Shown piece after piece: positions 9,449-28,270 of a DNA stretch of 36,256 bases. The position numbers and the translations under genes were made by a program. Below the pieces are notes generated by a model that did no database searches, had not been told where the DNA came from, and saw only the letters and a list, made by a program, of their open reading frames with translations. Positions within the stretch are counted from its first letter, which is position 1. The number at the start of each line of letters is the position of its first letter. Location of the stretch: contig LFRY01000082.1 of assembly GCA_001512995.1 (NCBI GenBank), positions 4,672 to 40,927 of the forward strand, written 5' to 3'. The DNA comes from Acholeplasmatales bacterium DTU067. GTDB lineage: Bacteria; Bacillota_I; Bacilli_A; ML615J-28; CAG-698.

Positions 9449-9475
9449 TTAAAAGGATATCCTGAAGATATCCTT
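9449..9475 (-). terminator. Terminator closing the 14-gene locus
   Basis: Perfect 9-base arms AAGGATATC / GATATCCTT with a 5-base loop (9453-9475), overlapping the stop codon of the phosphodiesterase gene. A TTTT run follows on the minus strand. Confidence 0.8.
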
Positions 9476-10934
9476 AATCAAAAATGTCCATCCGCCCGAC
9501 ATTTGCATCCTTTAAAGTGAAGCCCAGCATTTCCGCCATCGCCACGCCGAATTGCGGGACGAGATATTCCTTCTCCTCAAGGCCGATTTTTTTGACCCTG
9601 TAACCCCAAACGATTCCGTAAATATGCCTGGAGCTGTCAAGTATCGTATCGTGCTGTCCGCGCACGGCATAGTTTCCAGAGGGGTTTTCCCTGCCGTGGA
9701 AATGATATCTTTCGCTCGGAATCACCAGCAAATCCACATTCGCGCCCCGCCAATATCCCTGCTGAAGCAATTCCTTCTTGGTCAGCACGGCCTGGACATA
9801 CTCTTCCTTAAGCAATTCCCGCTTGATGCTTTCCAATTCATTTTCCGTCACCGAACTGTCAAGAAAGGTAAGTTGCATCTGCAATCCGACGCCGACGCCG
9901 ACGATGGTTGTTGAAGGGGATGGTTTTTCTCCCGGACCAAGGTATTCGAAAACATAATCCTTGTTGATGCTTTTCAGTTTGTCGCGAAGAGCCGGCCATT
10001 TCGAATGGCTGTATTTACTGAAGAGGGATTCCAAAATACTTGGAGCGCCGAAGGGAGTCATCCCGTGGTCGGTGGTCAGGAAAAAAGTTGTTTTCTCATA
10101 AATGCCACGATCCTTGTATGCCTGGATCAGCTCCGCCAGTTTTTGATCGATGGTTTCCAAGGCAGCCAGGACATTATTTAACCTTCCGTTTTCGGTGCTT
10201 GCTTTTTTATATCCGTACGCGTCTTTTTCATTATGCCCCAACGCATCCAAATCATCGCAATAGATGGTTAAGAAACGCGGAACTTCTTCAAGCCGCATCG
10301 GACTTGTTCCGTTTTGGAAGGAATTGCCCCTGACCAGTTTTATCGCCTGATCAAATCTCGCGGCCGCATCCGCTTCCGTCCCGCTCGGTTCTGTCACATA
10401 GAGACGGGTGGGATCGGTCGGAGAAAAAACGGATTCGGCGGGGAAATGCCGCACGGAGACCGAAGGTATCCCCAATTCGACTGCTTTGTCATACAAGGTT
10501 TCCGCTTTGTTTTCCCTGCCCTGCTGGACGACGATGTTGTTGAGACGGTCGTAATAACGGTAAACATTTTGGGTTTTTCCGGAGGTCGCGCCGGAAATGA
10601 TCATTGCCTGATTGGGATTGGTGATCGACGGCGGCAAATTATACAAGTTTTCAAACATCACGCCTTCCTGAATTAGTTTCCGCAAAGTCTGCACGCCGCC
10701 CCTTTTCACCGCTTCGTCATAATAGTATTTCGCAAACCCGTCCAGATTGATGTAGACGACATAATTGTCGGAATCCCCTGGCTCTCCGGGAACTGACGGG
10801 TCGTCAATGGGATCTTCCGGATCCTCGGTTCCGTTTTCCCCAGGATCGTCGATTGGCTCTTTCGGTTTTTCGGGAACCGTACAGCCGACCAAAAGCAGGA
10901 AAAAGGAAAGTAAACAGATCAAATATTTACGCAT
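9474..10934 (-). CDS. Lipoprotein type I phosphodiesterase/nucleotide pyrophosphatase-like (PDE1)
   Basis: Alkaline-phosphatase-superfamily hydrolase of the phosphodiesterase/NPP type (PF01663-like), predicted to cleave phosphodiester or pyrophosphate bonds outside the cell. 486 residues: signal peptide with lipobox LVGC (Cys18), a Pro/Asp/Glu-rich linker (19-57), then the catalytic domain. The metal and catalytic set is complete: Asp65 (INLDGF), nucleophile Thr105 in SITNPNQ, Asp230 and His234 (DALGH), Asp289-His290 (TTDHGM) and His428 (RGQHDT). GGAGG lies 6 bases before ATG 10934. It is the last gene of the 14-gene run, 92 bases after the LTD lipoprotein, with a hairpin between. It is a full-length paralogue of PDE2 at the other end of the locus. 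Substrate (nucleotides, teichoic or glycan phosphodiesters) cannot be read from sequence. Confidence 0.9.
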   Translation of the reverse strand: MRKYLICLLSFFLLLVGCTVPEKPKEPIDDPGENGTEDPEDPIDDPSVPGEPGDSDNYVVYINLDGFAKYYYDEAVKRGGVQTLRKLIQEGVMFENLYNLPPSITNPNQAMIISGATSGKTQNVYRYYDRLNNIVVQQGRENKAETLYDKAVELGIPSVSVRHFPAESVFSPTDPTRLYVTEPSGTEADAAARFDQAIKLVRGNSFQNGTSPMRLEEVPRFLTIYCDDLDALGHNEKDAYGYKKASTENGRLNNVLAALETIDQKLAELIQAYKDRGIYEKTTFFLTTDHGMTPFGAPSILESLFSKYSHSKWPALRDKLKSINKDYVFEYLGPGEKPSPSTTIVGVGVGLQMQLTFLDSSVTENELESIKRELLKEEYVQAVLTKKELLQQGYWRGANVDLLVIPSERYHFHGRENPSGNYAVRGQHDTILDSSRHIYGIVWGYRVKKIGLEEKEYLVPQFGVAMAEMLGFTLKDANVGRMDIFD

Positions 10935-10969
10935 GAGGCCTCCTTTCCACGGGTGGTTGATACCAAACA

Positions 10970-10994
10970 GCGAAGGGGCCGTTGGCCCCCTCGC
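10970..10994 (-). terminator. GC-rich hairpin between LTD2 and PDE1 (attenuator or processing stem)
   Basis: Arms GCGAaGGGGCC and GGCCCCcTCGC around GTT, one mismatch per arm. No proper T run follows on the minus strand, so full termination is doubtful. It may lower or stabilise expression of PDE1 relative to the upstream genes. Confidence 0.45.
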
Positions 10995-11026
10995 CTTCTC
11001 CTACTGCAAATAAGGGATATTCTTGA

Positions 11027-12799
11027 TTACACCGGAACCGTGAAGTTCGCGGCGATGCCCCTGCCGATGGTGTTGTATCCGTTCCTCAGGTAGGTGGTGG
11101 GATAGGCTTCCGATTCGAAAACAAGGATTTCCGCGCTGTCGTTAATTTCCGGATATTCCGGTCCGACGCCGGAGAGTTTGAAGGTGTTCAGCGCGGCTAT
11201 GACTGGATCGGTGACACCATCATTGGAGAAATAGGCTTCATAATCCGCTCTTGTTCCGGCCAAAGGAATGAAGCGCATCAGGTGCGAATCCGCTTCCGGA
11301 AGCGTGTATTGCAGGCCGCGGTATTCTCCCCATTTCTCGTATTTCATGCTTTCTTCTGCTTCGACGAGTTTGCCGTAGAGCAGGGCAGTGGAAACGGGCG
11401 TCACGATGTCTCTGTACATCTGCAAATATGCGACTGTGTTGGCATTGTAGACATCGAGGGCCGCGCTCTTGTTTGCATAGCCGAGGAGATTGTCCTCCGC
11501 GTCATAATAAGCGATCCTTGCATAGAAGGCGTTGATGCTTTCCCTGCCGCCCTTCACCTGGATCTTGGAGCGGTCAAGGGTTCCATCCGCATAGATCTCT
11601 TCTTCAGGATTGAGAACTCCCACATCGTATTTGTAATAGGCAGCCGTTTCAAAGCCCGGTACGTTTTCGACGAGGATTTGTTTCTCCAAATCGAATTTTT
11701 GGATCTGCAGGCCGCGGTCGTCGACGCTTGAATTGAAGGAAGCGAAACGGTTGGACTCGCCCTTGACCGGCGCCGCTCCGAAGCCTTCGTCATCCCCCGA
11801 GGAGGTTCCGTTCATCAGACAGGGCTGCGGGCGAACCGGGAATACAAGGACATCTTCGCCGAGCCCGTAGACGGCGCGGAATTTATCGATGCTTAAGTTT
11901 TCTTCGCCGTCGCCGAAGAGATGGGCTGCGGCTCCCGAAACTTCCTGCATGATCCTGCCGCTCGAACCGATAAGGAGTTCTCCGTTGACCTGCTCCCAGG
12001 GGTAGGAAGCCACGATCCAAAGAACAGCGGAACTGAGCGCCGGGATCTTGTAGTCCTGATAGATGTAGACGCCGCTTGCCATGCCGATGGGCTCTTCGAA
12101 CAACCCGAACTCCGACAGCAGAGTCGCTTCCTGATTTTTCAGGTTCGCAAAGACAATCCTGTGGTTTTTCAGATTGTATTCTTCGGTGGTGTTGTTAAAG
12201 ATTTCGACATAGCTGTACTCATACATTTCCACTCCGATCTCGGTGATTAAGAGATCCGGAGCTCCCTCGATGACATCGGTGGGCTGTTGGGTGGCGATTT
12301 TCGAGAAGTCGATGTCGGTGATTGTCTTCGTGGGAATCGATGTCGCTTCTTCCGCCGTCAGAACAACTTCGATGTCAAAGGCGGTGGTTCCGTTTTCGGT
12401 GACGATGGTTACCTCATGCTCTCCGAGTTCAAGGTCTAGTTCATGCAAAACATCGCCGAAAATGGTTAATTCGCCGTCTTCAAACTCATAATCAAGGTAT
12501 TCTTCCAAAACCTTGCCCGCAAACAGAACCATTAAATTTTCCGCGCCTTTCAGATCGACTTCTGCCGTCACATTCCCTTGGATTGCCCCAGGAACCCAAT
12601 GATAGACAACGGGCGTAACCGTGGGTGACGGAGTCAGATCCTCGGGCTCGCAAACCTGGCATTCTTCACATTCCGGACATTCTTCACATTCCTGACATTC
12701 TTCGCATTCCGGACATTCTTCGCATTCCGGGCCATCCTGGCAGCCCACCATTGCGAAGACAAAAAGTACACACAACAGTGCTGCAAAGAATCTTTTCAA
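11027..12799 (-). CDS. Lamin-tail-domain lipoprotein with Cys/Glu repeat stalk (LTD2)
   Basis: Surface lipoprotein of about 590 residues, function unknown. In order: signal peptide with lipobox MVGC (Cys20); a stalk with a cysteine every third residue from 26 to 50 (CEE-CPE/CQE units); a Ser/Thr/Pro linker; an Ig-like domain resembling CBM_X2 (about 72-147, LDYEFEDGELTI, LGEHEVTIVTENG); a lamin tail domain (about 181-300, LLITEIGVEMYEYSYVEIFNN, YNLKNHRIVF); and a C-terminal region shared with LTD1. The start is probably TTG 12799, because GGGAGG ends 9 bases before it; the next upstream TTG (12808) touches the ribosome site. It lies 14-23 bases after the RDD gene. Bacterial LTDs are common in secreted nucleases and surface proteins, so a polymer-binding role is plausible but unproved. 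Confidence 0.85.
   Translation of the reverse strand: MKRFFAALLCVLFVFAMVGCQDGPECEECPECEECQECEECPECEECQVCEPEDLTPSPTVTPVVYHWVPGAIQGNVTAEVDLKGAENLMVLFAGKVLEEYLDYEFEDGELTIFGDVLHELDLELGEHEVTIVTENGTTAFDIEVVLTAEEATSIPTKTITDIDFSKIATQQPTDVIEGAPDLLITEIGVEMYEYSYVEIFNNTTEEYNLKNHRIVFANLKNQEATLLSEFGLFEEPIGMASGVYIYQDYKIPALSSAVLWIVASYPWEQVNGELLIGSSGRIMQEVSGAAAHLFGDGEENLSIDKFRAVYGLGEDVLVFPVRPQPCLMNGTSSGDDEGFGAAPVKGESNRFASFNSSVDDRGLQIQKFDLEKQILVENVPGFETAAYYKYDVGVLNPEEEIYADGTLDRSKIQVKGGRESINAFYARIAYYDAEDNLLGYANKSAALDVYNANTVAYLQMYRDIVTPVSTALLYGKLVEAEESMKYEKWGEYRGLQYTLPEADSHLMRFIPLAGTRADYEAYFSNDGVTDPVIAALNTFKLSGVGPEYPEINDSAEILVFESEAYPTTYLRNGYNTIGRGIAANFTVPV
12650..12724 (-). repeat. 18-base tandem repeat encoding the Cys-x-x stalk
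   Basis: About four copies of an 18-base unit (consensus ACATTCTTCACATTCCGG on the plus strand) within the LTD2 gene. Each encodes a hexapeptide with two cysteines (Cys-Glu-Glu-Cys-Pro/Gln-Glu). Copies differ by one or two bases, so the tract is probably length-variable between strains. Confidence 0.85.
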
Positions 12800-12822
12800 A
12801 ATTTTCAACCTCCCTTTAAATA

Positions 12823-13410
12823 TTATTGATCATTGTGTAAGTCGAATTTGATGACCACGGTCCCTGCCAACAAATCATGGAGGGAACGGGAATCCTTGCG
12901 GAACAAAACCAAAAACATGGACACTATGTGGGGCAGGATCAGCATCGTTTCCAATAAGCCCTTGCCGACAAATTCCCTGAAGATCAGGCGGGAAGCTGAG
13001 ATTTCCTCCAAATTGGAGCGGTTGACCGCTCCGATGCCGGCGAACATTTTGCCGACGGTCTGCCCCCTCCCGATCAGGGCCGGAGCGAGGGAAAAATAAG
13101 CTGTCTTGATGAAAATCCAGTAAAGAAAAATCTTCAGGTAGAGTTGCCAGAGCAAATCGCGGAACTGCAGAAACAATTCCAGATCCGTGAAATCGGATTC
13201 GTTCAGGCCGATGCTCTCCACAAAAAGTTCAATTTCCTTAAACAGATGCCGCGTCGCCAGATACCAGATGACAACGACGAACAGCAAATCGACCAGATAA
13301 GCCAGGAAGCGGCGCAACGGGCTTGCCGTCTCAAAGCTCACCCTTTCAATCAGGTCTTCCGTGAAATCAATGACATTGCCGACGATATCCCTAATTTCTT
13401 TTTCTTCCAT
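12823..13410 (-). CDS. RDD-family membrane protein
   Basis: 195 residues with the RDD pattern: SPLRRFLAYLVDLLFVVVIW (about 30-50, Arg in the first helix, Asp at its end), a second helix (about 90-115), GQTVGKMFAGIGAV (about 125-138), a third hydrophobic segment and SRSLHDLLAGTVVI near the end. RDD proteins are integral membrane proteins of mostly unknown role; some act in ion exchange. AGGTGA lies 7 bases before ATG 13410. It is 8 bases after the metallophosphoesterase gene and directly upstream of LTD2, so it belongs to the locus. It could be an accessory for the neighbouring surface proteins, but nothing in the sequence shows this. Confidence 0.88.
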   Translation of the reverse strand: MEEKEIRDIVGNVIDFTEDLIERVSFETASPLRRFLAYLVDLLFVVVIWYLATRHLFKEIELFVESIGLNESDFTDLELFLQFRDLLWQLYLKIFLYWIFIKTAYFSLAPALIGRGQTVGKMFAGIGAVNRSNLEEISASRLIFREFVGKGLLETMLILPHIVSMFLVLFRKDSRSLHDLLAGTVVIKFDLHNDQ

Positions 13411-13418
13411 GGAATCAC

Positions 13419-15749
13419 CTATCCGAAGTAATCAGTCAATATTCCGTACCCTCTTCCCTGCAAATCGAAGGCATAATGGAATTCCAGGGTCTCACGGTAA
13501 TGGTCGCTGTCTTCGCTCAAAAACAAATCAGAATCCCGGTAGTATGGTGAATATAATCCGAAAAGGAGCAGATTGTTTCGAAAATCAAAATCAATCGTCC
13601 TGAAAAATGTCGCTCCGTAGAGATCTTCTTCCTCCTGGAAATTTGTGAGGAGCTGCAGAACCCGGCGGTCGGCAATGCCGTCCCCGTCGTCGTCCAAGTA
13701 GTCAATGAGTTTTGCGGAACCGTTGAGATGGCCGCTGAAAACAAATTTTACATTCCCATACTCCTTGACAAGTTCCGAGAAGACCTTTTCGCCCGTGGGT
13801 GTCCGCGTTCCGTTTGCCCGCAGGTATTCATGGGTAGCCAAAATCACCGTGCAATCAGGATGCGCATCAAGGACCGCTTTTGCCCAAGCGATGTCCTGCG
13901 AGGAAACATGGACGTAGGGGAACGAAGACCCCCAGCCCAGATAAAGAATCAGGAACGGATGCCCGTCGACTGTTAACAGGTCATAGTGGCTCCGGTTGTT
14001 CTGGAAGGATTCGCCGTAATGGGGAAAATCCTTAAAAACGTCCTCCCCCAGATAATCCCAAAAATAATCGTAAACCAATTCGGAATCGAGAGCATTAACC
14101 CCTTTCGGATGGTAGGAAGAGATGGCCCCCACATCGTGGTTCCCGCTGGAGACGCCCAGCGGAAGCCCCGAAGCAAGCAAGGGATCGAGGAAATGCGTTC
14201 TGACATTTTCCCATTCGGAAAGGGTCACACCCCGCTGTTGCTGCACGAAATCACCGGTCATGAGGAAATAACGGAGTTTTTCAGTTTCATGTTCCCAAAG
14301 CAAATATTGAACCATGGCATCAAAAGCCGCCTTGGCTTTCTTCCAAACAGCAGAATCTTTCTCGGAAAGGCTGAGCATTTGCGTGATGTATTGGAAGTCC
14401 GTGCCATGGATCAGCCGATCGCTGAAGGAGATTCCGGAAAAATCGGTAAAGGCGGAAGAGATGCGGACATAAACTGCATCTTCAAAAAGATATTTTTCTT
14501 CCCCCAAATAATCATAAGCCAAGGTGAGCGTTTCTCCGGACGCCCTGGCCGTGGAGACGGTCTCCCAGAGGTTTTCTTCAAAATTATAAAGCTGCATGAA
14601 GGCCGTCCGACCTTCATTGGCCTTTCCCTTCCAAACCAGGGCTGTTTTTTTGCCCCTTTCAACAACAAAACTTATCACTGGAGCTTCAGAAAAAGGCGTC
14701 CTGTCATAGTTTCCGTCCGTTTCCAGAAAAGCCGAGATGTCGGAAAGTTCCGCGCCCAGATCTTCAAGCGTGGCGGATGGGGAAGCCGCGACTCCCGTTT
14801 TATAAACCCTGTAACTTAGCTTCCCTGAAACTTCCGGCTTGCCCGTGAGCGAGAAACTCAAGGTTTTTGTTTTTTCAAACCCGTGTTCGTTTCTGGCTCT
14901 GATTTCCAAATCATGCGTTCCTTCGGACCAGGCATGCCTGGAAAAAGTCAGGTTCGGGGGGATGGGGATTCCGTCCATTTTCACTTCGAACCATTCCGCA
15001 TCCGCCGTGACTTGAAGCTTTTTGGTTTCGGAAATCACCTCGCCGTCATTGATGTTGCAGTCAATGCCGATGTGGGCTTCGTTTTTGATTTTATGAATCC
15101 TGTTTCCGGAAACTATCTCCAATTCTTCCCCTTCAAAATCTTCCAGAACTGCGCCGTATTTTTTGAGCAGTTTCTCATCCACATGAAAGGTGAAACTCAC
15201 GCTTTCCCGAAAATTCGAACGCAGGTCCTGATTCATGCCGTTTTCCCCGAGATTGATCGGTTCGTTGAAATACTCCGCTTCCGGATACTCCTCTGACCAG
15301 AATTCTTTGCCCGCAACTTGGATCCTGACATTTCTGATGCTGAAGGTATTGAGGTTTTCGGACAGGTATCTTCCTGCCTTGAAGGTGATTTCCAGTTTTC
15401 CGGAAACAATGTTCGGCCCGATGAGCGCAATCTCGTTGGAGATAAAGTTTTTATGGCTGTATCTTCCCGCCTTTAGGGGAAGAACCGCGTAGCCGTTAAT
15501 GATGATTTGGTTTTCATAATTGTTGTCCAGGTTTCTGCTCTCAAAGAGGATTTTAACCTGTTCCGAAGTGGTCCGATAAACAGGAACCGTTTTGCCGTTG
15601 ACGGTGATTTCTTCGGTTTCCCTGACGATGATTCCCATTTGCCCATTCCCGTATAGGGCTTGAACGCGCGCGGGTTTGAGAATCAGCCAAAGGCCCGCGC
15701 CGATGATGATGATTACGCAAAGCGCGATTGCCAACAGTTTCTTTTTCAT
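13419..15749 (-). CDS. Membrane-anchored metallophosphoesterase with altered metal ligands
   Basis: 776 residues. An N-terminal anchor helix (about 4-25, no lipobox) is followed by ~400 residues of beta-rich sequence, including an Ig-like stretch (about 255-310), and then a calcineurin-like phosphoesterase domain (about 440-690). Motifs: Asp451 in HGTDFQ, Asp500 in TGDFVQ, Asn537-His538-Asp539 in SGNHDV, His640 in ATHEYL and His674 in SGHLNG. The canonical DxH reads Asp-Phe-Gln and the canonical GHxH reads Gly-His-Leu-Asn, so both histidines that normally bind the first metal are replaced. Most of the protein should be outside the cell. It starts 7 bases after LTD1 without a strong ribosome site, suggesting coupling. 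It could be a single-metal or non-standard phosphodiesterase; substrate unknown. Confidence 0.87.
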   Translation of the reverse strand: MKKKLLAIALCVIIIIGAGLWLILKPARVQALYGNGQMGIIVRETEEITVNGKTVPVYRTTSEQVKILFESRNLDNNYENQIIINGYAVLPLKAGRYSHKNFISNEIALIGPNIVSGKLEITFKAGRYLSENLNTFSIRNVRIQVAGKEFWSEEYPEAEYFNEPINLGENGMNQDLRSNFRESVSFTFHVDEKLLKKYGAVLEDFEGEELEIVSGNRIHKIKNEAHIGIDCNINDGEVISETKKLQVTADAEWFEVKMDGIPIPPNLTFSRHAWSEGTHDLEIRARNEHGFEKTKTLSFSLTGKPEVSGKLSYRVYKTGVAASPSATLEDLGAELSDISAFLETDGNYDRTPFSEAPVISFVVERGKKTALVWKGKANEGRTAFMQLYNFEENLWETVSTARASGETLTLAYDYLGEEKYLFEDAVYVRISSAFTDFSGISFSDRLIHGTDFQYITQMLSLSEKDSAVWKKAKAAFDAMVQYLLWEHETEKLRYFLMTGDFVQQQRGVTLSEWENVRTHFLDPLLASGLPLGVSSGNHDVGAISSYHPKGVNALDSELVYDYFWDYLGEDVFKDFPHYGESFQNNRSHYDLLTVDGHPFLILYLGWGSSFPYVHVSSQDIAWAKAVLDAHPDCTVILATHEYLRANGTRTPTGEKVFSELVKEYGNVKFVFSGHLNGSAKLIDYLDDDGDGIADRRVLQLLTNFQEEEDLYGATFFRTIDFDFRNNLLLFGLYSPYYRDSDLFLSEDSDHYRETLEFHYAFDLQGRGYGILTDYFG

Positions 15750-15756
15750 GGTGCAA

Positions 15757-19858: not shown

Positions 19859-20893
19859 TCACCTTTCCTTGATGGCGTAATTTACGTCTGATTTGTTTAA
19901 TTTCTTTATAATTGCTCTGAACCCGCGTTTGAGCAGGGAGCCTTTTTTGCTTCCGGCGAATTCGATCTTCCTGCCGCCGATCATCGCCCGCTTCATCTGT
20001 TGGTTACCGAAAATATACATCAGAAGAATCGGCGCAAGCTGCATCACGTTTCCGGCCATGACCAAATGCCAGGGGGGAAGGACGCCTTCCGCTTTGAGCA
20101 AACCCCTGACCGCCACCGGCAGGGTTTTCAGTTTCTCGCTGTTGGTCATGACGAGAACCCAATAGTAGGAATTCCAATTGGAGATGAAAGTCAGCAAGAA
20201 ATGGGTGATGAAAATCGGGAAGATCATAGGTACCATGATTTTAAGCATGATCGTCCGGTTTTTGGCTTTGTCGAGAACCGCGGATTCGATGATTTCCTTG
20301 GGGATGGTTTTGAAATTGTTCATAAACAGGTAAATCCCGAACATTGAGAAAAGGGAAGGCAGAACCAAACCCGTCCAGGTATCGACCAGTCCCATTTTGG
20401 AATAAAAGAAATAAACCGGTATGAGAGTCGCTTCGCCGGGAAGCATCATCCCCAGTTGCTTGAGGTAGAAGAGGAATTTATTGCCTTTGAACTTCATTCT
20501 GGCAAATGCGTAGGCCGCGGGGACTATGAAGAAATATTGCAGTCCCAATACCAATGCCGCGTAGGTCACGGAATTGCCGAGATAAGTACTGAAGCGGGCC
20601 CTGTTCCAAGCCTGGATGTAATTTTCCCAATGCCATTCGTTCACCCAAAGGCCGGGCGAGAAGAGAACGGCTTCCTCATAGCTCCTGACCGACATCAAAA
20701 ACATCCAGACAAAGGGATAGACGAAGGTCAAACCCACGGCAATCATTGCCAGATAATTGATGATTTTGAGAATGTATTTGACTCTCTTGACGATTCTGAT
20801 TCTTCGTTCCTGTTTGGGCGTGAGCTCACTGATTACGGGAGAATAGGAAAAAGCCTCTTCCCTTTCAACATCAAATATTTTTTTGAAATCCAT
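19859..20893 (-). CDS. Sugar ABC transporter permease (MalG/UgpE type)
   Basis: Second membrane subunit of the importer. 344 residues: a charged cytoplasmic N-terminus of ~40 residues, six predicted helices (first about 50-70, LAMIAVGLTFVYPFVWMFLM), and the EAA coupling loop EIIESAVLDKAKNRTIMLKIMVP that docks to the ATPase. The C-terminal tail is extended and basic (RGFRAIIKKLNKSD). It is 15 bases after the coiled-coil permease and immediately before the binding lipoprotein, giving a complete importer in one operon. Confidence 0.94.
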   Translation of the reverse strand: MDFKKIFDVEREEAFSYSPVISELTPKQERRIRIVKRVKYILKIINYLAMIAVGLTFVYPFVWMFLMSVRSYEEAVLFSPGLWVNEWHWENYIQAWNRARFSTYLGNSVTYAALVLGLQYFFIVPAAYAFARMKFKGNKFLFYLKQLGMMLPGEATLIPVYFFYSKMGLVDTWTGLVLPSLFSMFGIYLFMNNFKTIPKEIIESAVLDKAKNRTIMLKIMVPMIFPIFITHFLLTFISNWNSYYWVLVMTNSEKLKTLPVAVRGLLKAEGVLPPWHLVMAGNVMQLAPILLMYIFGNQQMKRAMIGGRKIEFAGSKKGSLLKRGFRAIIKKLNKSDVNYAIKER

Positions 20894-20908: not shown

Positions 20909-22678
20909 CTAATAATTAATGGCTTTTTCCACAACTCTATCAAAATACAAGTTCTTCAACAACGTGCAAACCGCAATCATTAAAGTCAGGATGATTGCTC
21001 CGGCCATGGCGGTTCCGTAATTGAAACCAATCCTTCCGACCTTGTAAATCCAGTAGCTCAGGACCATTGAAGACCCCATCGGGCCCCCGTTGGTCATAAT
21101 CTCAATCGGAGCAAAAACTTTGAAGGAATTGATGAACTTGGTCAGAAAGACAAAGGACATCGTCGGCGCCAGGAGCGGCAGGGTGATTTTGAAGAAAGTC
21201 GTGGTTTTGCCGGCTTTGTCCAAAAGGGCAGCTTCGTACACATAGGCAGGAATGCCCTGGAGGCCCGAAATAATTATCAGCACATAATAACCTATGTCCT
21301 TCCAAACCGTGACCAGGGATACCGAAAAGAGGGATGTGTTTTCCTGCAAGAGCCAGGCGGGACCCTTGATTCCGAAGAGGGCGAGGAATTGGTTGATGAT
21401 TCCCGTCGGATTGAGCATCGCGATCCAGAGGATGGAAATCGAAACCAAGGAAGCGATGTGGGGCGTGAAGACCATCGTCTGCGTAAGATTGTGGATTCTC
21501 GTGTTCTTCGCCAACCAGGCCGCCATTCCGACCGTGACAACAGTCAGGAGCACGATCGTAATCAAAGCATAGATAGCCGTGTTTCCCAGGGCTTTCTGGA
21601 ACTCGGTGTCCTTCGTGAAGATGTTTATGAAATTGGAAAGACCCACGAAGCGCGATCTACGCATGTTTGCAAAATCAATCCTGAAGAAGGAGCCCACAAT
21701 CATGAAGATGAAGGGCAGCAAAGTGAAGAGCACCGCCCCCAGAAATGCCGGGGCAACATAGATGTAAGCGGGATTGATTCTCTTGAAGATTTTTGCTTCC
21801 AAACTGTCCATGCGCTTGAGCTTCCGCAGGCGAAAATCCTCTCTGATATATTTTTGCAGTTGTTTGTAGAGATTTCTTTCCTCGGGAGACATCCGCCTCA
21901 CTGTTTCCCGCGCTTCCAGCCTGATTTCCTTGATTTTTGCTTGCGCGTCCTTTTTTACATTAAGATAATCCAAATAAAGTTTTCTGACCTTGTCCGCATC
22001 CCGCGCTTGCTTTTCCCGCATCAGCTTCCGCTCGGCTTCAATCCGGGCGTTGAGGCCGGCTATCAGAGCAAGTTTTTCTTTCTTGAATTCCTTTTTTGGA
22101 GTCTGGCGGTGTTCATTCAAGAGGGTATTTTTTTCTTTTTCATAATCACCGTTGAGTTCAATCAATCTGTTCCGGTAATCAGCAAGAATTCTGAGGCGCG
22201 CCTCCTCCTGTTCCCTGAGTCTCCTTTCGAGCTCCGCCGCCCGGTATTTCTGAAATTTCGTTTCGAATTCACGGAGTTTGCTTTTCGCTTCCGGGTGGCC
22301 CTTTTTAATTGCCGCCAAAAATTCTTTTTTTGCTTTCCGGTAGTTGGCGTCAATTTTTGCCATGACCAAAGCGACGTGCTGCTTGCTCTCTTTGAGGATG
22401 AAATTCTTGTTTTCTTTCAGTTCGGAAACCCGGTTCCGATGTTCGCGGCGGAGTTTCCGCATTTCATCTCGAAAATCCCGGCGGCGCCCTTTCAACAGCG
22501 CTTTTTGGAGGTTGCGTTCCGCCACCAAATCCTTGGTTTGCTCATTGAAGTGCAGACGATGCTTGTATTTTTCGGAAAGAAACAAATCCTTCGCTGCATC
22601 AATTCTGTCCAACTGAGCAAAGATTTGCTTTTGGACGATGCGGTTATAGCTGGTTTCCAAATGCTCTAAAGGATTCAT
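20909..22678 (-). CDS. Sugar ABC transporter permease (MalF/UgpA type) with ~300-residue coiled-coil N-terminal extension
   Basis: First membrane subunit of the importer, 589 residues against the usual ~300. Residues 1 to about 300 are highly charged and alanine/leucine-spaced with no hydrophobic helix (EFETKFQKYRAAELERRLRE, ARIEAERKLMREKQARDADK), predicted as a long cytoplasmic coiled coil. The permease then begins at INPAYIYVAPAF (about 302), with six helices and an EAA loop (AYVYEAALLDKAGKTTTFFKITLP). One open frame covers both parts. ATG 22678 has GAGG just upstream, and the gene overlaps the ATPase by 35 bases. The extension is on the ATPase side of the membrane and could regulate coupling, scaffold the cytoplasmic enzymes or tether the importer; I know no standard domain for it. 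Confidence 0.9.
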   Translation of the reverse strand: MNPLEHLETSYNRIVQKQIFAQLDRIDAAKDLFLSEKYKHRLHFNEQTKDLVAERNLQKALLKGRRRDFRDEMRKLRREHRNRVSELKENKNFILKESKQHVALVMAKIDANYRKAKKEFLAAIKKGHPEAKSKLREFETKFQKYRAAELERRLREQEEARLRILADYRNRLIELNGDYEKEKNTLLNEHRQTPKKEFKKEKLALIAGLNARIEAERKLMREKQARDADKVRKLYLDYLNVKKDAQAKIKEIRLEARETVRRMSPEERNLYKQLQKYIREDFRLRKLKRMDSLEAKIFKRINPAYIYVAPAFLGAVLFTLLPFIFMIVGSFFRIDFANMRRSRFVGLSNFINIFTKDTEFQKALGNTAIYALITIVLLTVVTVGMAAWLAKNTRIHNLTQTMVFTPHIASLVSISILWIAMLNPTGIINQFLALFGIKGPAWLLQENTSLFSVSLVTVWKDIGYYVLIIISGLQGIPAYVYEAALLDKAGKTTTFFKITLPLLAPTMSFVFLTKFINSFKVFAPIEIMTNGGPMGSSMVLSYWIYKVGRIGFNYGTAMAGAIILTLMIAVCTLLKNLYFDRVVEKAINY

Positions 22679-23735
22679 AAACCTCAGCCACCTCCCTTTC
22701 GCCGTAGATTCTTTTTTCTTTCTCGTCGAAAGCGTAGGCGTTTTTCCGTTTCAAAATAATTTCCGCAGATTCGCCGATCGCCTTCATCCTGCGGTCGGAA
22801 TCCTTAATGTAAATTTTTCCGATGCCGATGTCCACATAGTATAAGAATTCCGAACCATGGTTTTCTATTGCCAGTATTTTGCCGCGGATTATGCAATCGT
22901 CCGTTTTTGGGACATTTTCTTCGTTTACAAAATTTATGTTCCTTGGCCTGAAGCCAATTTTTTTTCCGTTTTCAAGTGTAATGACGTTCATCCCGGGGTC
23001 GCCGATGAATTGCGCAACAAAAACGCAATTCGGCTCGTCGTAAATCTCAAGCGGCGTTCCGACCTGTTCGACGACGCCCTCATTCATCACCACGATGTTG
23101 TCGCCCATGGTCATCGCTTCGACCTGGTCATGGGTGACATAGACAAAGGTTGACTCCAAGGACTCATGGATCTGAATCAGTTCCGTCCGCATCGAGGATC
23201 TCAGCTTCGCGTCCAGATTGGACAGGGGTTCGTCCATCAAAAATACCTTCGGTTTTTTTGCTACGGCCCGCGCCAGGGCGACGCGCTGCCTTTGCCCGCC
23301 GGAGAGATTGGCGGGGCGCCGGTGGGCATACTCCTCTAAATTCACCAGTTTCAGGACTTCTTTGATCCGACGGCTGATTTCATAACTCGGCATGCGTGCG
23401 TTTTTCAAACCGAATTCGATGTTCTTCCAAACCGTCATGTGCGGGTAAAGGGCATAGGATTGAAAGACCATGGCGATGCCGCGGTCGCCTGGAGGGATGT
23501 TGGTGATGTCGACATCGTCGAGCTTGATGGTTCCCAAAGTGATGCTTTCCAGTCCGGCAATCATCCTGAGCAAAGTCGTCTTTCCGCAGCCCGAGGGCCC
23601 GACCAAAACCGTGAAACTCCGCTCGGGAATGACCATCGAAACGTTATTTACCGCCCGCACCCCTTCCGGCAACAGCCCTTTCCTTTTGGGTTCGCCGTAG
23701 ATTTTCGTAATGTGGTTGAGTTCAATCCTCGACAT
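22644..23735 (-). CDS. Sugar ABC transporter ATPase (MsmX/UgpC type)
   Basis: Energises the importer. 363 residues: Walker A GPSGCGKTT (46-54), Q-loop FQSYALYPH, signature LSGGQRQR, Walker B VFLMDEP, H-loop VTHDQVEA, and a C-terminal TOBE-like regulatory part (about 235-350, GFRPRNINF). GGAGG lies 6 bases before ATG 23735. It overlaps ChbG by 14 bases and the coiled-coil permease by 35. Unlike many Firmicutes that share one distant MsmX, this locus carries its own ATPase, which may be needed for the unusual permease. Confidence 0.95.
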   Translation of the reverse strand: MSRIELNHITKIYGEPKRKGLLPEGVRAVNNVSMVIPERSFTVLVGPSGCGKTTLLRMIAGLESITLGTIKLDDVDITNIPPGDRGIAMVFQSYALYPHMTVWKNIEFGLKNARMPSYEISRRIKEVLKLVNLEEYAHRRPANLSGGQRQRVALARAVAKKPKVFLMDEPLSNLDAKLRSSMRTELIQIHESLESTFVYVTHDQVEAMTMGDNIVVMNEGVVEQVGTPLEIYDEPNCVFVAQFIGDPGMNVITLENGKKIGFRPRNINFVNEENVPKTDDCIIRGKILAIENHGSEFLYYVDIGIGKIYIKDSDRRMKAIGESAEIILKRKNAYAFDEKEKRIYGEREVAEVYESFRAFGNQL

Positions 23736-24474
23736 ATCTTGCCTCCGTGTAATTTGTTAATTCTATCCGATGGATGGCCAGCAAGTTTTTGATCCTCGCG
23801 CTGGTCAGGACTTTCAGTTCAATCAAGCGTTCGCGGTTGTATGAAGAATTCTTCATCAAAAAAGCATCGAGAAAAGCCGGATGAACCATCATCTCAGCAT
23901 ATTCCAAGGCAGCCAAATCCCTGATGCGGGCTTCAAACCTCCTGAAAAGCGCTTCTTTCGTCTCGAATTTTCCGACCTTGAACCAGGGAAGAAAGGGGAT
24001 GGGTGGAAACCCGTCTATGATCATCCCGCGGACGGGTAGCTTCTTTTCCAGCGCGAATTCCCGGATCGCTTCTCCCACAGTCCTGTAAACCTGGTGCGCA
24101 TAGAGGTGCGTATCCAAATGTGATGGAGGCTTCCCAAATTTCCGGATGAATTCATTGTACTGCGCTTGAAATTCCTGTTTGATTTCCTCTTTTTTAAACA
24201 GGGACTCGTCGGGTTTGTCTTTCGGTTTATAAAAAAGCCCGCCTTTCTTGGTTAAACTGGGAACGGAAGCAAGGGGCTTCCCGCAGGTGATGTTCAAATG
24301 CAGGCCGATGGCTAAGCGGGGGTGGAAACGGGCGATTCCCACGGCATGGTCGATGGACGGCATCGTGACCATCGCGGAGGTGGAGGTGACGATGCCCGAC
24401 CTGTGCGCTTCAATGATCCCAAGGTTCACTCCGTCGGAATACCCGAAGTCGTCGGCATTGACTATCAGCTTCAT
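23722..24474 (-). CDS. YdjC/ChbG-family carbohydrate deacetylase
   Basis: Metal-dependent deacetylase family; the E. coli member ChbG removes one acetyl group from chitobiose-type sugars, including phosphorylated ones. About 250 residues. Motifs: NADDFG (6-11, metal Asp residues), IGLHLNIT, SHLDTHLYAH and EMMVHPAFLD. ATG 24474 overlaps the GH4 stop as ATGA, so it is preferred over ATG 24489. Its place between a GH4 6-phospho-glycosidase and an ABC ATPase suggests it acts on the same imported sugar, perhaps an N-acetylated and phosphorylated oligosaccharide (inference). Confidence 0.92.
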   Translation of the reverse strand: MKLIVNADDFGYSDGVNLGIIEAHRSGIVTSTSAMVTMPSIDHAVGIARFHPRLAIGLHLNITCGKPLASVPSLTKKGGLFYKPKDKPDESLFKKEEIKQEFQAQYNEFIRKFGKPPSHLDTHLYAHQVYRTVGEAIREFALEKKLPVRGMIIDGFPPIPFLPWFKVGKFETKEALFRRFEARIRDLAALEYAEMMVHPAFLDAFLMKNSSYNRERLIELKVLTSARIKNLLAIHRIELTNYTEARYVED

Positions 24475-25814
24475 TTTAGCACCGGCCAATAATCCTTGTT
24501 GGCGATAATCAGTTCGTCAAGGATTTTTTTTGCTAGTTCCATGTCAATGATGGTGCGGTTCAAAGTCAGGGCCTGGAGAGCTTTTAAATAACTCCCTTCA
24601 AAATAAGCATCGCAGGTCAACTTTTCATATGCATATTGCTGTTCGATCAAGCCCTTATGATAAGTTCCGATTTTTCCGACCGGAAGCGGCTTCGGGCCTT
24701 CTTTTCCGAGCTCGCAAACCACTTCCACAATCGCTTCTTCCGGCAAATTGGGAATCACGCCCCTGTTTTTCACCATCATCACATAATGCCGCCCCTGATC
24801 ATGAAGGATCGCTTCCGCTATCTCCAAAATCATTTCCCCATGCGCATCTTCTTTGTTCATTTCCTTTTCGACCAAAGCACTAACCCTGATTGTTCCGGAA
24901 CTGATGACGCGTTCGCATTCCGAAAAGACACGCTTTTCGCGCCCGTCCATCACTTCGTTGGCGCGCGTGTATTCAGGATTTAAGTGGGAAAGCGTTCTTC
25001 TCGGAAGCAAATAATACTGGAGATAAGTATTCGGCAGATACGTCGGGTCAAGTTCCAACATGTGGCGCACCGTTTCATAGGTGACGAGCCAGGAGGGGTC
25101 CCGGCTTTCCTTGTCGGCGGGATAAAACCCTTCTTCAAGGATCTTTTGCTTGATTTTCTCCGTCAAGTCTTCGTTGTTGTTTTTATTGATTATCTTGGTA
25201 AACCAGCCGAAATGATTCAAACCGAAATAATGGGGAATCATGTCCTGGTATTTAATGTTTCCGAGCAGGCGCGCGTAAGCCATCATGAGACTGATCGGCT
25301 GGTCGCAGATGTTGAGGATTCTTTTTTCATTGGGGAAGGCCATGTCCAGAGCGAGGGCGACGATGGCCGCAGGATTTGTATAATTGATGATCCAGGCCCT
25401 TGGTGAATGGATTCTGATTTCTTCAACCAGGCGGATCATGTCCCCGATCGAGCGCATTCCGTAAGCGAAACCGCCGGCGCCGCAGGTCTCCTGGCCGATG
25501 GCGCCGTTTCTTAGAGGAATCTTTTCGTCGAGTTCGCGCATTTTGAAACCGCCGGTCCTGATCTGGCAAAAAACGAAGTCCATGTCCTTGAAGGCGGTTT
25601 CTTTGTCAGCGGTATATATCACTTCCAACTCGGGATAATATTCTTTCATCAAAAGGAGGGCATATTTGCCCATCTTTTCCAATCGCTCAGCGTCGATGTC
25701 ATAGAGGACGAGTTTTTTTAGCGGGAAACTCTTCTTCTTCTTGATCATCCCCACCAAAATTCCCGGCGTGTAGGTGCTCCCGCCGCCGGCAATGCAGACA
25801 CGCAGTTTTTCCAT
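24471..25814 (-). CDS. GH4 6-phospho-alpha-glucosidase-like enzyme
   Basis: NAD- and metal-dependent glycosidase acting by oxidation and elimination. 447 residues, normal for GlvA. Dinucleotide motif GGGSTYTPG (11-19), NYTNPAA (144-150), NICDQP with Cys170 and Asp171, and GLNHFGW with His201. These match the metal Cys171/His202 and catalytic Asp172 of B. subtilis GlvA, and Tyr264 matches its Tyr265. Asp after the cysteine points to the alpha (CDMP-type) rather than the beta (CNVP-type) subgroup. GGAGATGATAGG precedes ATG 25814, 32 bases after PDE2. GH4 phospho-glycosidases usually serve PTS systems, yet an ABC importer is encoded here, so the substrate may already carry phosphate or a kinase may act elsewhere. 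Confidence 0.93.
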   Translation of the reverse strand: MEKLRVCIAGGGSTYTPGILVGMIKKKKSFPLKKLVLYDIDAERLEKMGKYALLLMKEYYPELEVIYTADKETAFKDMDFVFCQIRTGGFKMRELDEKIPLRNGAIGQETCGAGGFAYGMRSIGDMIRLVEEIRIHSPRAWIINYTNPAAIVALALDMAFPNEKRILNICDQPISLMMAYARLLGNIKYQDMIPHYFGLNHFGWFTKIINKNNNEDLTEKIKQKILEEGFYPADKESRDPSWLVTYETVRHMLELDPTYLPNTYLQYYLLPRRTLSHLNPEYTRANEVMDGREKRVFSECERVISSGTIRVSALVEKEMNKEDAHGEMILEIAEAILHDQGRHYVMMVKNRGVIPNLPEEAIVEVVCELGKEGPKPLPVGKIGTYHKGLIEQQYAYEKLTCDAYFEGSYLKALQALTLNRTIIDMELAKKILDELIIANKDYWPVLK

Positions 25815-25846
25815 CCTATCATCTCCTCACATCATCTAACGGATTA

Positions 25847-27304
25847 TTATTTTTCGAACACGTCCAAGACTATGCCGTTGGCGTTGGGAATCACTAGTCC
25901 CAAAGCCGCCGCCATGGTTGTTCCGAAATCAAAGTTGTAAGCCCTATTTTGATAGACATAGTTTTTCTTGATTCCCTTCCCCCAAATGACACCGAAAACA
26001 TGATTCGAACTGTCGAGCAGGGAATCGTGCTGCCCGCGGGCAACATATTGCATGAAATAATTGGAACTGAAAACATATCTGTCCGCCGGGGTGATGATCA
26101 TGTCAGCGGCGCCTTCCATGTAGCCCATGGCTTTCAGATCTTCGCGGATAAGGACCTTACCGACAAAGTGGAGTTTTGCAAGTTCCGTGCGTAGGGCTTC
26201 AAGCTCTTCGTCGCTGATTCCCTGCTTCCAAGTGAGTTGCAGGTTCAGGTTCGCTCCGACGGCCACTACATCCGTTCTCGGTTTTGGGGAGGAACCGGGC
26301 GCGACCATTTCCAAAACATGTCCGTGGTTTTGGAAGAATGTCTGCAGGTCCCCCAATTTGGAAGTCCCGTAATCACCGCTGTCGTCCAGCGACTTCAGGC
26401 CATAGGGAGTCATGCCATGATCGGTCGTGAGGAAGAAAGTCATCCGCTCGTAAATCCCGGCGTCCTTGCAAGCCTGGATGAATTCGCCGAGCTCTTGGTC
26501 CATTTCCTCGAGCCTGGCGAGAACATTTTCCATCCTGCCCGCTTCGGTCTCCGCGCGCCTGATGCCGTAGGCATCCTCAAAATTATGCCCCAGAGCATCC
26601 AAGTCATCGGCGTAGAAAACAATCAGGCGCGGCAGCTCTTCAACTGTGACTTGATTTCCCCCGACATGCACGCTCTCCCCCTTAACAAGCCTTTTCAGTT
26701 GCGTGAAGCGGGCAAAGTAATCATTCGCCTGCCCCCTTTGGATGATTTCGGGAAGGTTTGGGTCAGAGGTGATGTAATAGGTTTTATCCTGTTTCAGCAC
26801 GGTTTCCAAAAGATAGTGGGAAACGCTGGCGACGCTCAATCCGGCTTCCACCGCGACATGGGCAATGGTTTTGTTTGCGTTTTCTCGCTCTTGCTGGATG
26901 ACGGTATTGATCGTCCTGTCATAGTAGCGGTAAACATTCCTCGTAATTTCGGAAGTGGATCCCGAAAGGATCATGTTCTGGCAAGGATTTGTGATTGAAG
27001 GCAGCGTCGTCCGCAGATCCTCAAAAAAGACACCCTCGCTGATGACCTGCCGCAGAACGGGCAGGGCATCGGGATTTTTTTCTAGCAATTCGTCAAAATA
27101 ATAACGGGCAAAACCGTCCCAATTGATGTAGACTACATAAGCGTTTTCTACCATGGCTACTCCTTCCTGATAATCCGGCGCATTTTCGCGTCCGCGGATG
27201 CTGTATTCGTTCTTCGGTTCCGGCTCCGGTTCATCCTGGTGCGGTTTGCATCCCGGAAAGATTAGAAATGACAAGACTATGAGCATCAGAAATATTTTCT
27301 TCAT
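25847..27304 (-). CDS. Lipoprotein type I phosphodiesterase/nucleotide pyrophosphatase-like (PDE2)
   Basis: Paralogue of PDE1, about 485 residues. ATG 27304 (GGAGTGG upstream) starts a clean signal peptide with lipobox FPGC (Cys19); the longer frame to 27340 has no such start. Glu/Pro-rich linker, then the catalytic domain: Asp63 (INWDGF), Thr105 in SITNPCQ, DALGH, TTDHGM and RGQHDS. The asparagine that normally follows Pro in the nucleophile loop is Cys108 here, but Asn in PDE1. It is the first gene after RpiR, behind a promoter and a 14-base inverted repeat, and 32 bases before GH4. The two phosphodiesterases thus bracket the structural genes and may take different substrates. Confidence 0.9.
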   Translation of the reverse strand: MKKIFLMLIVLSFLIFPGCKPHQDEPEPEPKNEYSIRGRENAPDYQEGVAMVENAYVVYINWDGFARYYFDELLEKNPDALPVLRQVISEGVFFEDLRTTLPSITNPCQNMILSGSTSEITRNVYRYYDRTINTVIQQERENANKTIAHVAVEAGLSVASVSHYLLETVLKQDKTYYITSDPNLPEIIQRGQANDYFARFTQLKRLVKGESVHVGGNQVTVEELPRLIVFYADDLDALGHNFEDAYGIRRAETEAGRMENVLARLEEMDQELGEFIQACKDAGIYERMTFFLTTDHGMTPYGLKSLDDSGDYGTSKLGDLQTFFQNHGHVLEMVAPGSSPKPRTDVVAVGANLNLQLTWKQGISDEELEALRTELAKLHFVGKVLIREDLKAMGYMEGAADMIITPADRYVFSSNYFMQYVARGQHDSLLDSSNHVFGVIWGKGIKKNYVYQNRAYNFDFGTTMAAALGLVIPNANGIVLDVFEK

Positions 27305-27327
27305 AAACCACTCCGATAAAATGAAAA

Positions 27328-27392
27328 TAAGTATAATCAAATTGCCAGGCGCTTCAAGGCAGCGCTTTCACTCCGCACTTTGATTATACTTA
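27328..27392. promoter_or_regulatory. Perfect 14-base inverted repeat, candidate RpiR operator pair
   Basis: Arms TAAGTATAATCAAA (27328-27341) and TTTGATTATACTTA (27379-27392) with a 37-base spacer. The right arm contains the -10 box of the PDE2 promoter; the left arm lies in the 5' leader. Arm centres are 51 bases apart, close to five helical turns. Confidence 0.6.
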
Positions 27393-27412
27393 ATTGATGC
27401 TTTTTTTATCAA
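27383..27412 (-). promoter_or_regulatory. Promoter of the PDE2-GH4-ABC locus
   Basis: Minus strand TTGATA (27412-27407), an 18-base spacer and a consensus TATAAT (27388-27383), about 80 bases before ATG 27304. The -10 lies within an arm of the inverted repeat at 27328-27392. Confidence 0.75.
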
Positions 27413-27508
27413 CGCCCAACCATTACATAAAAAGTAATACATGACAATCTGCTTGTCTTTTGGGGCAAAGCATGAAACCCCATGTTTTTGTTGTGATTAC
27501 TATATGTA

Positions 27509-28270
27509 CTAATCCGTTTTGGTTTTTTGGTTGACATAGGTTGTGATGATGATGTTGAGGATGAAGAGAATGGGAAGCCGCGAGGAGATGTCCTGTCTGT
27601 TACTGCAGGCTTCTTCACTGGAGATGGAAAAATTATAATCCCCGATTTTGGACAATTCGTTCCCGGTGTTGGATGAAATCGTGACGACCGTCGCCCTCCT
27701 GCTTTTCGCAATCTGCGCCATGCGCACAACCTGATGCGTGTTCCCGCTCAAGCTGCAGGCAAAAAGGAGGTCGTTTTCGGTCATCGATTCCGCCACCAAA
27801 TAAGCGATGTGCGTGTCCTTATAGATGAAATTGGCGCGGTTGTAGGTCAGCAATTGCTTGGACGCATATTCAAGAACCGTCGCGGTCAAACCCTTCCCGA
27901 AGAAATGGATGTTTGTGGGTTTGAGCATCAGTTCCACGATTTTCAGGATCTTCTTCTCGTCCAACATCGCCGCCGTTTCCACAATCGCCTTCACGTTCTG
28001 ATCCAAAGTGTCCGTAAACGTGGCGTCCCGGTGGGCTTTTTCCATTTGGCTGAGCTCTTCCCTAATGTGGAATTTGAGTTCGGTGAACCCGGAATAGCCC
28101 AGTTTCTTGCATAACCTCATCACGGTCGCCGTCGAAACAAAGGTCGTTTCCGCAAGCTTCTTGACGCTTAAACTCAAGACGAGTTTGCGATTGTTCTGAA
28201 TGAAACGCAAAACATCCAATTCGGAAATGGTAAGAGAATTGATTGTGTCGATGCTGATACTGGAAAGCAT
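27509..28270 (-). CDS. RpiR-family transcriptional regulator
   Basis: Sugar-phosphate-sensing regulator. About 253 residues: N-terminal HTH_6 domain (about 1-75, LAETTFVSTATVMRLCKKLGYSGF) and a SIS sugar-phosphate domain (about 100-235, IHFFGKGLTATVLEYASKQL, LLFACSLSGNTHQV). ATG 28270 is chosen because GGGGGG lies 4 bases upstream; the frame extends to a TTG at 28297 without a ribosome site. It is transcribed in the same direction as the locus but separated from PDE2 by 204 bases holding a promoter and the inverted repeat. A phosphorylated sugar effector fits the GH4 enzyme downstream. Divergent from pflB. Confidence 0.9.
   Translation of the reverse strand: MLSSISIDTINSLTISELDVLRFIQNNRKLVLSLSVKKLAETTFVSTATVMRLCKKLGYSGFTELKFHIREELSQMEKAHRDATFTDTLDQNVKAIVETAAMLDEKKILKIVELMLKPTNIHFFGKGLTATVLEYASKQLLTYNRANFIYKDTHIAYLVAESMTENDLLFACSLSGNTHQVVRMAQIAKSRRATVVTISSNTGNELSKIGDYNFSISSEEACSNRQDISSRLPILFILNIIITTYVNQKTKTD

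What the first reader, a model, noticed from the sequence alone, without database searches (positions are those of the whole stretch)
9474..28270. A 14-gene locus joining surface phosphodiesterases, LTD lipoproteins, an ABC sugar importer and a GH4 phospho-glycosidase
All genes from rpiR to PDE1 run in one direction, mostly with gaps under 35 bases or overlaps. It encodes three extracellular phosphoesterase-type enzymes (two NPP-like lipoproteins, one anchored metallophosphoesterase), two LTD lipoproteins, a full ABC importer, GH4, ChbG and MocA enzymes, and a sugar-phosphate-sensing regulator. The simplest reading is a utilisation system for a phosphodiester-bearing polymer (for example teichoic-acid-like or phospho-glycan): cleave the phosphodiester outside, bind with LTD proteins, import, then deacetylate, split and oxidise. 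I know no described system with this gene set.
Basis: partly seen in the sequence, partly recalled or inferred. Interest (0 to 1): 0.78.

Follow-up and report, generated by a model that had tools for sequence, protein, structure and literature searches.

The report
PTS-free operon for phosphodiester-linked sugars
A conserved 14-gene cluster in bacteria related to Acholeplasma appears to cut phosphate links in a sugar-containing material and import the pieces, so that the sugar may arrive already carrying the phosphate that related bacteria add during uptake.

Summary
In detail: 14 same-strand genes, 11 of 13 junctions at 32 bases or less or overlapping. The locus is conserved. The same order recurs in two Acholeplasmataceae MAGs and Acholeplasma granularum (type A). 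A reduced type B (three genomes of the window's own family) keeps RpiR-GH4-ChbG-ABC-permeases-SBP-MocA, and in the two that are not cut by a contig end also RDD and NPP; it has no LTD lipoprotein or metallophosphoesterase, and its NPP has no signal peptide. A 17-base inverted repeat precedes the first structural gene; its exact form occurs 6 times in nine genomes, always at this cluster. GH4 is a 6-phospho-alpha-glucosidase by sequence and active-site residues. Non-cluster relatives lie beside PTS genes in 15 of 17 loci read; the 7 cluster copies lie beside an ABC importer, with no PTS gene in the cluster. Best reading: NPP opens a phosphodiester and leaves the 6-phosphate that PTS would otherwise add. 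The substrate is unproven; a teichoic-acid-like polymer or glycerophospho-glycolipid headgroup fits. New variant of a known kind.

The parts
27509..28270 (-). RpiR-family regulator (HTH_6 + SIS)
   Evidence: Pfam; groups with the type B RpiR of G021 in the tree
27422..27438 (-). operator-like inverted repeat ATTACTTTTTATGTAAT, 9 bases upstream of the -35 hexamer
   Evidence: exact form 6 times in nine genomes, always at this cluster
27383..27412 (-). promoter-like site TTGATA-18-TATAAT
   Evidence: 11 of 12, one of the two best in the region
25847..27304 (-). NPP1, phosphodiesterase lipoprotein (lipobox FPGC; start at the ATG inside the ORF)
   Evidence: PF01663 86 bits; lipobox; catalytic residues kept
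24471..25814 (-). GH4, 6-phospho-alpha-glucosidase type
   Evidence: 6vc6 518 bits, 1u8x 409 bits; active-site residues
23722..24489 (-). ChbG/YdjC deacetylase
   Evidence: PF04794; NF002559 223.3 bits, cut-off 227
22644..23735 (-). ABC importer ATPase
   Evidence: PF00005
20909..22678 (-). ABC permease with a long charged N-terminal extension
   Evidence: PF00528 in residues 388-577
19859..20893 (-). second ABC permease
   Evidence: PF00528
18423..19862 (-). solute-binding lipoprotein
   Evidence: PF13416; lipobox; 35-37% identity between types A and B
17145..18419 (-). Gfo/Idh/MocA oxidoreductase, cysteine-rich
   Evidence: PF01408, PF02894; alignment A4
15757..17148 (-). LTD2 lipoprotein
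   Evidence: homology to LTD1; lipobox; weak lamin-fold matches
13419..15749 (-). anchored metallophosphoesterase-like protein
   Evidence: no Pfam hit; N-terminal helix; model matches SMPDL3A
12823..13410 (-). RDD membrane protein
   Evidence: PF06271; also in type B
11027..12808 (-). LTD1 lipoprotein
   Evidence: PF00932 E 2e-4, below cut-off; lipobox
10969..10995 (-). strong hairpin between LTD1 and NPP2 (attenuator or partial terminator)
   Evidence: 12 pairs; -25.5 kcal/mol, z -2.15; a hairpin in the same gap of A. granularum
9474..10934 (-). NPP2, phosphodiesterase lipoprotein (lipobox LVGC)
   Evidence: PF01663 98 bits; lipobox; catalytic residues kept
9453..9475 (-). terminator-like hairpin at the operon's end
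   Evidence: -10.8 kcal/mol, z -1.78

Best explanation
An RpiR-controlled catabolic operon for an alpha-gluco(samin)ide that carries a phosphodiester at its 6-position. Surface NPP lipoproteins, helped by LTD lipoproteins and an anchored metallophosphoesterase, cut the phosphodiester so that a 6-phospho-oligosaccharide is left; the ABC importer brings it in; ChbG removes acetyl groups; GH4 splits the 6-phospho-alpha-glycosidic bond to a hexose-6-phosphate; MocA oxidises a product. The phosphodiester thus supplies the 6-phosphate that related GH4 systems receive from PTS. Type B clusters probably import the intact diester and cut it inside. Shown by sequence: gene set, conservation, the operator-like site, the GH4 type, and the lack of a signal peptide on the type B NPP. 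Inferred: every catalytic step, which side of the diester keeps the phosphate, the imported form, activation by RpiR, and the substrate.
For: GH4 matches 6-phospho-alpha-glucosidases over its whole length and shares nine active-site residues with all 7 cluster copies and 3 PTS-linked ones (the equivalence to the residues listed in PMC13197890 is mine). GlvA and BglT need a 6-phospho substrate (PMC10628242 passages). Non-cluster GH4s lie within four ORFs of PTS genes in 15 of 17 loci read of 21; the 7 cluster copies lie with an ABC importer and ChbG and have no PTS gene in the cluster. NPP keeps its catalytic residues in all 7 sequences aligned, both types (roles recalled). In A. granularum each of the two tandem NPP genes has its own exact operator copy. 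SBP is 35-37% identical between types while permease, ATPase, GH4 and MocA keep 56-63%, as expected if the imported form differs.
Against: No enzyme step or transcript was measured. A kinase or PTS elsewhere in the genome was not searched for; A. granularum has a PfkB-family kinase two ORFs upstream of its first NPP. ChbG (37-45%) and RDD (38-43%) also differ strongly between types, so SBP divergence is not unique. In the GH4 tree a PTS-linked sequence (G150) groups with type A at 0.955, so A and B are not shown to be sisters. Two of 17 non-cluster GH4s have no PTS gene nearby. The operator is absent at up to one mismatch in UBA5769 and untestable in G010.
Confidence: 0.45

Rival explanations
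1. An ordinary ABC-fed alpha-oligosaccharide operon: a cytosolic kinase encoded elsewhere makes the 6-phosphate, or GH4 no longer needs it, and NPP and the metallophosphoesterase serve phosphate or nucleotide scavenging beside it.
For: CUT1-type ABC importers usually carry unphosphorylated sugars (recalled). A PfkB kinase lies near the A. granularum locus. The best PDB sequence match of NPP2 is a nucleotide phosphodiesterase, ENPP4.
Against: NPP is kept with the GH4-ABC core in both types, and in A. granularum NPP genes carry the cluster's operator. GH4 keeps the active-site residues of phospho-enzymes. No kinase is in the core.
Confidence: 0.2
2. Salvage of membrane phosphoglycolipids (the cell's own or a neighbour's), such as glycerophosphoryl-diglucosyl-diacylglycerol, not use of a polymer. 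The chemistry would be that of the best explanation.
For: A. laidlawii membranes contain glycerophosphoryl diglucosyl diacylglycerol (PMC3942410 passage). Many parts are lipoproteins. The SBP and permease resemble Ugp proteins weakly.
Against: A housekeeping lipid-turnover system should be widespread, but the cluster is in 6 of 395 class genomes. No lipase or deacylase is in the core; an SGNH hydrolase flanks rpiR in two type A genomes only. Ugp matches are far below cut-off.
Confidence: 0.15
3. A chb-like system for N-acetylglucosaminides, in which ChbG and GH4 work as in chitobiose use and NPP acts on GlcNAc-1-phosphate or nucleotide-sugar diesters.
For: GH4 and ChbG are adjacent in all 7 clusters. 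ChbF needs ChbG to act on the 6-phosphate disaccharide (PMC13197890 passages).
Against: GH4 has Asp after the metal Cys (CDQP) where the paper lists Asn for ChbF, and it matches alpha-type enzymes best. No PTS is in the cluster, and no chitinase was seen among the cluster genes.
Confidence: 0.1

Closest known systems
glv-type operon: PTS EIIBC + GH4 6-phospho-alpha-glucosidase + RpiR-family GlvR (B. subtilis)
   Same: GH4 of the same clade by sequence, RpiR-family regulator, site placed for activation; GlvR is a positive regulator (PMC2908567 passages)
   Different: ABC importer in place of PTS; phosphodiesterases, ChbG and MocA added
chb operon: PTS + ChbF (GH4) + ChbG
   Same: GH4 next to ChbG
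   Different: alpha-type GH4 (CDQP) and no PTS
Ugp system for glycerol-3-phosphate and glycerophosphodiesters
   Same: ABC importer with phosphodiester-related enzymes; weak similarity of SBP and permease
   Different: scores far below equivalog cut-offs (29.6 of 411; 118.9 of 335); sugar enzymes present
NPP/alkaline-phosphatase-superfamily phosphodiesterases
   Same: PF01663 and the catalytic residues
   Different: one weak PDB sequence match only (ENPP4, 28 bits); lipoprotein form in type A, no signal peptide in type B

Membership tests
GH4, 6-phospho-alpha-glucosidase clade | full-length match to characterised members | tested here: met
   6vc6, 6dux, 1u8x at 518, 426 and 409 bits over nearly the whole length
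GH4, 6-phospho-alpha-glucosidase clade | active-site residues incl. Cys-Asp and the subsite arginines | tested here: met
   R93, E109, T110, N147, C170, D171, H201, Y264, R284 in 10 of 10 aligned; mapping to PMC13197890's list is mine
GH4, 6-phospho-alpha-glucosidase clade | activity on 6-phospho-alpha-glucosides | not testable with these tools
   needs enzyme assay
PTS-linked glv-type operon | PTS transporter gene beside GH4 | tested here: not met
   no PTS domain in the 14 genes
chb (chitobiose) operon | ChbG beside GH4 | tested here: met
   NF002559 just under cut-off
chb (chitobiose) operon | beta-type GH4 (Asn after the metal Cys) and PTS | tested here: not met
   D171 in all seven; no PTS
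NPP family (PF01663) | score over gathering cut-off | tested here: met
   98, 86 and 54 bits against 23
NPP family (PF01663) | catalytic Thr and metal ligands | tested here: met
   D65, T105, D230, H234, D289, H290, H428 invariant in 7 of 7; roles recalled
Lamin-tail domain (PF00932) | score over gathering cut-off | tested here: not met
   21.8 against 34.3 in LTD1; LTD2 no hit
Lamin-tail domain (PF00932) | lamin Ig-like fold | tested here: inconclusive
   16 of top 17 PDB matches are lamins, but E 0.0064 or worse on a poor model
Calcineurin-like metallophosphoesterase | Pfam match | tested here: not met
   no Pfam family at 0.001
Calcineurin-like metallophosphoesterase | fold | tested here: inconclusive
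   SMPDL3A E 2.4e-5, target TM 0.42, model pLDDT 65
UgpB/UgpA glycerol-3-phosphate importer | equivalog cut-off | tested here: not met
   29.6 of 411 and 118.9 of 335 bits

The most novel reading that the evidence does not exclude
A sugar-catabolic strategy in which a phosphodiester in the food molecule replaces PTS or kinase: an NPP phosphodiesterase frees a sugar-6-phosphate glycoside that a PTS-lineage GH4 can use, in two versions that differ in where the diester is cut (lipoprotein NPP outside, signal-less NPP inside). It would let acholeplasma-like bacteria feed on other bacteria's teichoic acids or phosphoglycolipids without spending ATP or PEP on that phosphorylation.
Probability: 0.35. 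Interest if true: 0.72.

Novelty: new variant of a known kind. Interest (0 to 1): 0.52.

Why it matters
If right, it gives a defined route by which acholeplasma-like bacteria use phosphate-linked glycans, and shows a PTS-lineage glycosidase re-wired to an ABC importer by using the phosphate already in the substrate. A named strain with a public genome, Acholeplasma granularum ATCC 19168, carries the locus, so it can be tested. The short operator and the two-version comparison make the substrate form and the site of cleavage testable.

Tried and rejected
Glycerate as a product: a glycerate kinase gene lies beside rpiR in A. granularum and UBA5769, and all 6 cluster carriers searched have the gene, but so do 35 of 43 genomes of the order; the two flanking copies are only 34% identical, and elsewhere it lies with GntP or other genes. 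Dropped as evidence, kept as unexplained.

MocA as a marker of wider spread: of 15 non-cluster places I read 8; none has GH4, NPP, ChbG or LTD hits, and one (G082:C49) lies with another CUT1-type importer. LTD1 hits in G011, G110 and G141 cover only short N-terminal stretches and were not counted. No Rfam family or tRNA in the window. The glycyl-radical enzyme upstream is pyruvate formate-lyase and the FGGY kinase downstream is xylulokinase, so neither helps with the substrate. MocA matches are too weak to name a reaction. Profile searches of solved structures with the metallophosphoesterase and LTD2 found nothing of use. Ten paper searches found no description of this gene set in their listings; they cover open-licence PMC papers only, and mostly the top 8-20 rows of long lists were seen. 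PMC3539956 passages gave nothing on teichoic acid structure.
Full report
What is there. The window is 36 kb of a 40.9 kb contig of a 1.47 Mb genome, 90% complete (list). Relatives of its LTD2 gene in named genomes are two Acholeplasmataceae MAGs and Acholeplasma granularum ATCC 19168. The 14 genes from rpiR (28270) to NPP2 (9474) lie on the minus strand. Pfam supports RpiR, two NPP-family enzymes, GH4, ChbG/YdjC, ABC ATPase, two permeases, a solute-binding protein, MocA and RDD. NPP1, NPP2, LTD1, LTD2 and the SBP have lipoboxes; the metallophosphoesterase has an N-terminal helix instead. One of the two best promoter-like sites of the region (11 of 12) precedes NPP1; the other precedes the gene after NPP2. 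The scan finds 24 promoter-like sites against 17.6 in shuffles and 27 terminator-like sites against 27.4, so single sites carry little weight. A hairpin lies between LTD1 and NPP2 (-25.5 kcal/mol, z -2.15), and one lies in the same gap of A. granularum (-31.6, z -7.66); NPP2 may be expressed differently from the rest.

Conservation. LTD1 found a long homologue in 1 other genome of 43 in the order (G010) and in 2 others of 395 in the class (G010 and G341). Both carry the locus in the same order, though the G010 contig ends inside NPP1 and shows no rpiR. A fourth locus is in MAG UBA5769, where MocA is split and NPP2 is missing. These four are type A. NPP and GH4 searches then showed type B in G038 and G027, and in G021 (the window's own genus), cut by its contig end in MocA. 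Type B runs RpiR, GH4, ChbG, ABC, permease, permease, SBP, MocA and, in G038 and G027, RDD, a GNAT and NPP. It has no LTD lipoprotein and no metallophosphoesterase, and its NPP starts almost at the catalytic domain, without signal peptide. In A. granularum one of three NPPs also lacks a recognisable signal peptide, with a stop just before it in the frame, which may be a truncation. In the class sample the cluster is in 6 of 395 genomes. The samples hold one genome per species and the class was drawn evenly from a larger group, so rarity is approximate.

Regulation. The region upstream of the first structural gene holds an inverted repeat, RTTACWTTTTWTGTAAT, next to the -35 region (promoter positions outside the window read by eye). 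In nine genomes the exact form occurs 6 times, all at this cluster: window, G021, G027, G038 and twice in A. granularum, where each copy precedes one of two tandem NPP genes. Three genomes without a cluster (G020, G029, G039) have no exact copy. The pattern was read from five of the six sites, so only the second A. granularum site and the absence elsewhere are independent. With up to one mismatch there are 21 matches in all against 31 for the reversed pattern, so only the exact form is informative. G010 has none, but its upstream region is not assembled. UBA5769 has none at up to one mismatch; a three-mismatch copy lies just before a TTGACA at the expected place, a match that the rate would give by chance in roughly 0.004 of such stretches (rough, since base composition differs). 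The position suggests that RpiR activates, as GlvR does (PMC2908567 passages); that is inference.

The key inference. GH4 matches 6-phospho-alpha-glucosidases end to end (6vc6 518 bits, GlvA 1u8x 409 bits) and keeps the active-site residues checked in 10 of 10 sequences. GlvA and BglT need a 6-phospho substrate (PMC10628242 passages), usually made by PTS. Of 21 non-cluster GH4 hits in the class I read 17 neighbourhoods: 15 have PTS genes within four ORFs, and none matched the cluster's permeases, SBP, NPP or ChbG there; two have an ABC-type ATPase of another kind (PTS by Pfam in five, by BLAST to those in the other ten). The two exceptions are the second G112 copy and G214. All 7 cluster GH4s lie with an ABC importer and ChbG, without a PTS gene in the cluster and without a sugar kinase in the core; A. 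granularum has a PfkB kinase two ORFs upstream. The missing phosphate is most simply supplied by the phosphodiester that NPP opens. In type B the diester would be imported and cut inside. In keeping with this the SBP is 35-37% identical between types (60-70% within type A), while permease, ATPase, GH4 and MocA keep 56-63%; but ChbG (37-45%) and RDD (38-43%) also diverge. I have not shown that NPP leaves the phosphate on the sugar, nor that no kinase or PTS exists elsewhere.

Substrate. Structures that fit are main-chain poly(alpha-glucosylglycerol phosphate) teichoic acids, lipoteichoic-acid anchors and glycerophosphoryl-diglucosyl lipids. Two facts were read: A. laidlawii has glycerophosphoryl diglucosyl diacylglycerol (PMC3942410 passage), and S. 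aureus lipoteichoic acid joins glycerol phosphate to C-6 of a glucosyl in a beta-linked anchor (PMC8866510 passages). The rest is recalled. ChbG points to an acetylated sugar; in chb systems ChbG must act before GH4 (PMC13197890 passages).

Evolution. In trees of GH4 and permease the window groups with G010 (support 0.93 and 0.97), A. granularum and UBA5769 pair, and type B stands apart; in the GH4 tree a PTS-linked sequence joins type A at 0.955, and in the SBP tree the window's place is unresolved (0.44). RpiR of the window instead groups with G021, the type B locus of its own genus (support 0.98; 68% identity against 46-51% to A. granularum and UBA5769). The locus therefore looks mosaic: type A structural genes under a type B-like regulator. 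This rests on six ingroup RpiR sequences.

Weak points. The LTD assignment is below Pfam's cut-off, and both structure models are poor. The metallophosphoesterase has Gln and Asn where the motif as I recall it has two histidines. MocA's reaction is unknown. Glycerate kinase and SGNH hydrolase genes flank rpiR in two type A genomes and are unexplained.

Verdict. It is a new variant of a known kind: a sugar-utilisation operon of known parts, with PTS replaced by an ABC importer plus phosphodiesterases. The ten paper searches listed in Tried and rejected showed no description of it.

Noticed in passing
window 20909-22678: The ABC permease has an N-terminal extension of about 300 charged residues in type A; in type B the protein is 377-393 residues, with a much shorter extension. 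Role unknown.
   Followed up: partly
window 11027-12808: LTD1 carries a linker of CEEC/CPEC repeats right after the lipid-anchor cysteine; short look-alikes occur in unrelated genomes.
   Followed up: no
L156 2502-5094 and L016 4136-5272, L015+L016 joined 26159-26803: Glycerate kinase and an SGNH hydrolase flank rpiR in UBA5769 and A. granularum, at opposite ends of the operon.
   Followed up: partly
L158 6019-7692: A GH13 protein like sucrose phosphorylase (222 bits, below the 334 cut-off) lies beside a second glycerate kinase in UBA5769, about 10 kb from the cluster.
   Followed up: partly
L019 8363-9626: MocA of UBA5769 is split into two ORFs: a broken gene or an assembly error.
   Followed up: no
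L037 44-1447: A protein with a CBM77 domain lies upstream of the type B cluster in G021.
   Followed up: no
window 1364-6990: GH3, a GH43 fragment, a LacI regulator and xylulokinase form a separate xylan-type locus downstream.
   Followed up: no
window 28694-31686: Pyruvate formate-lyase and its activator, divergent from rpiR; in G021 a homologous pair lies beside glycerate kinase on another contig.
   Followed up: no
window 32668-36137: CAAX-protease-like protein, three proteins without Pfam hits and an ABC ATPase on one strand, unrelated to the finding by annotation.
   Followed up: no
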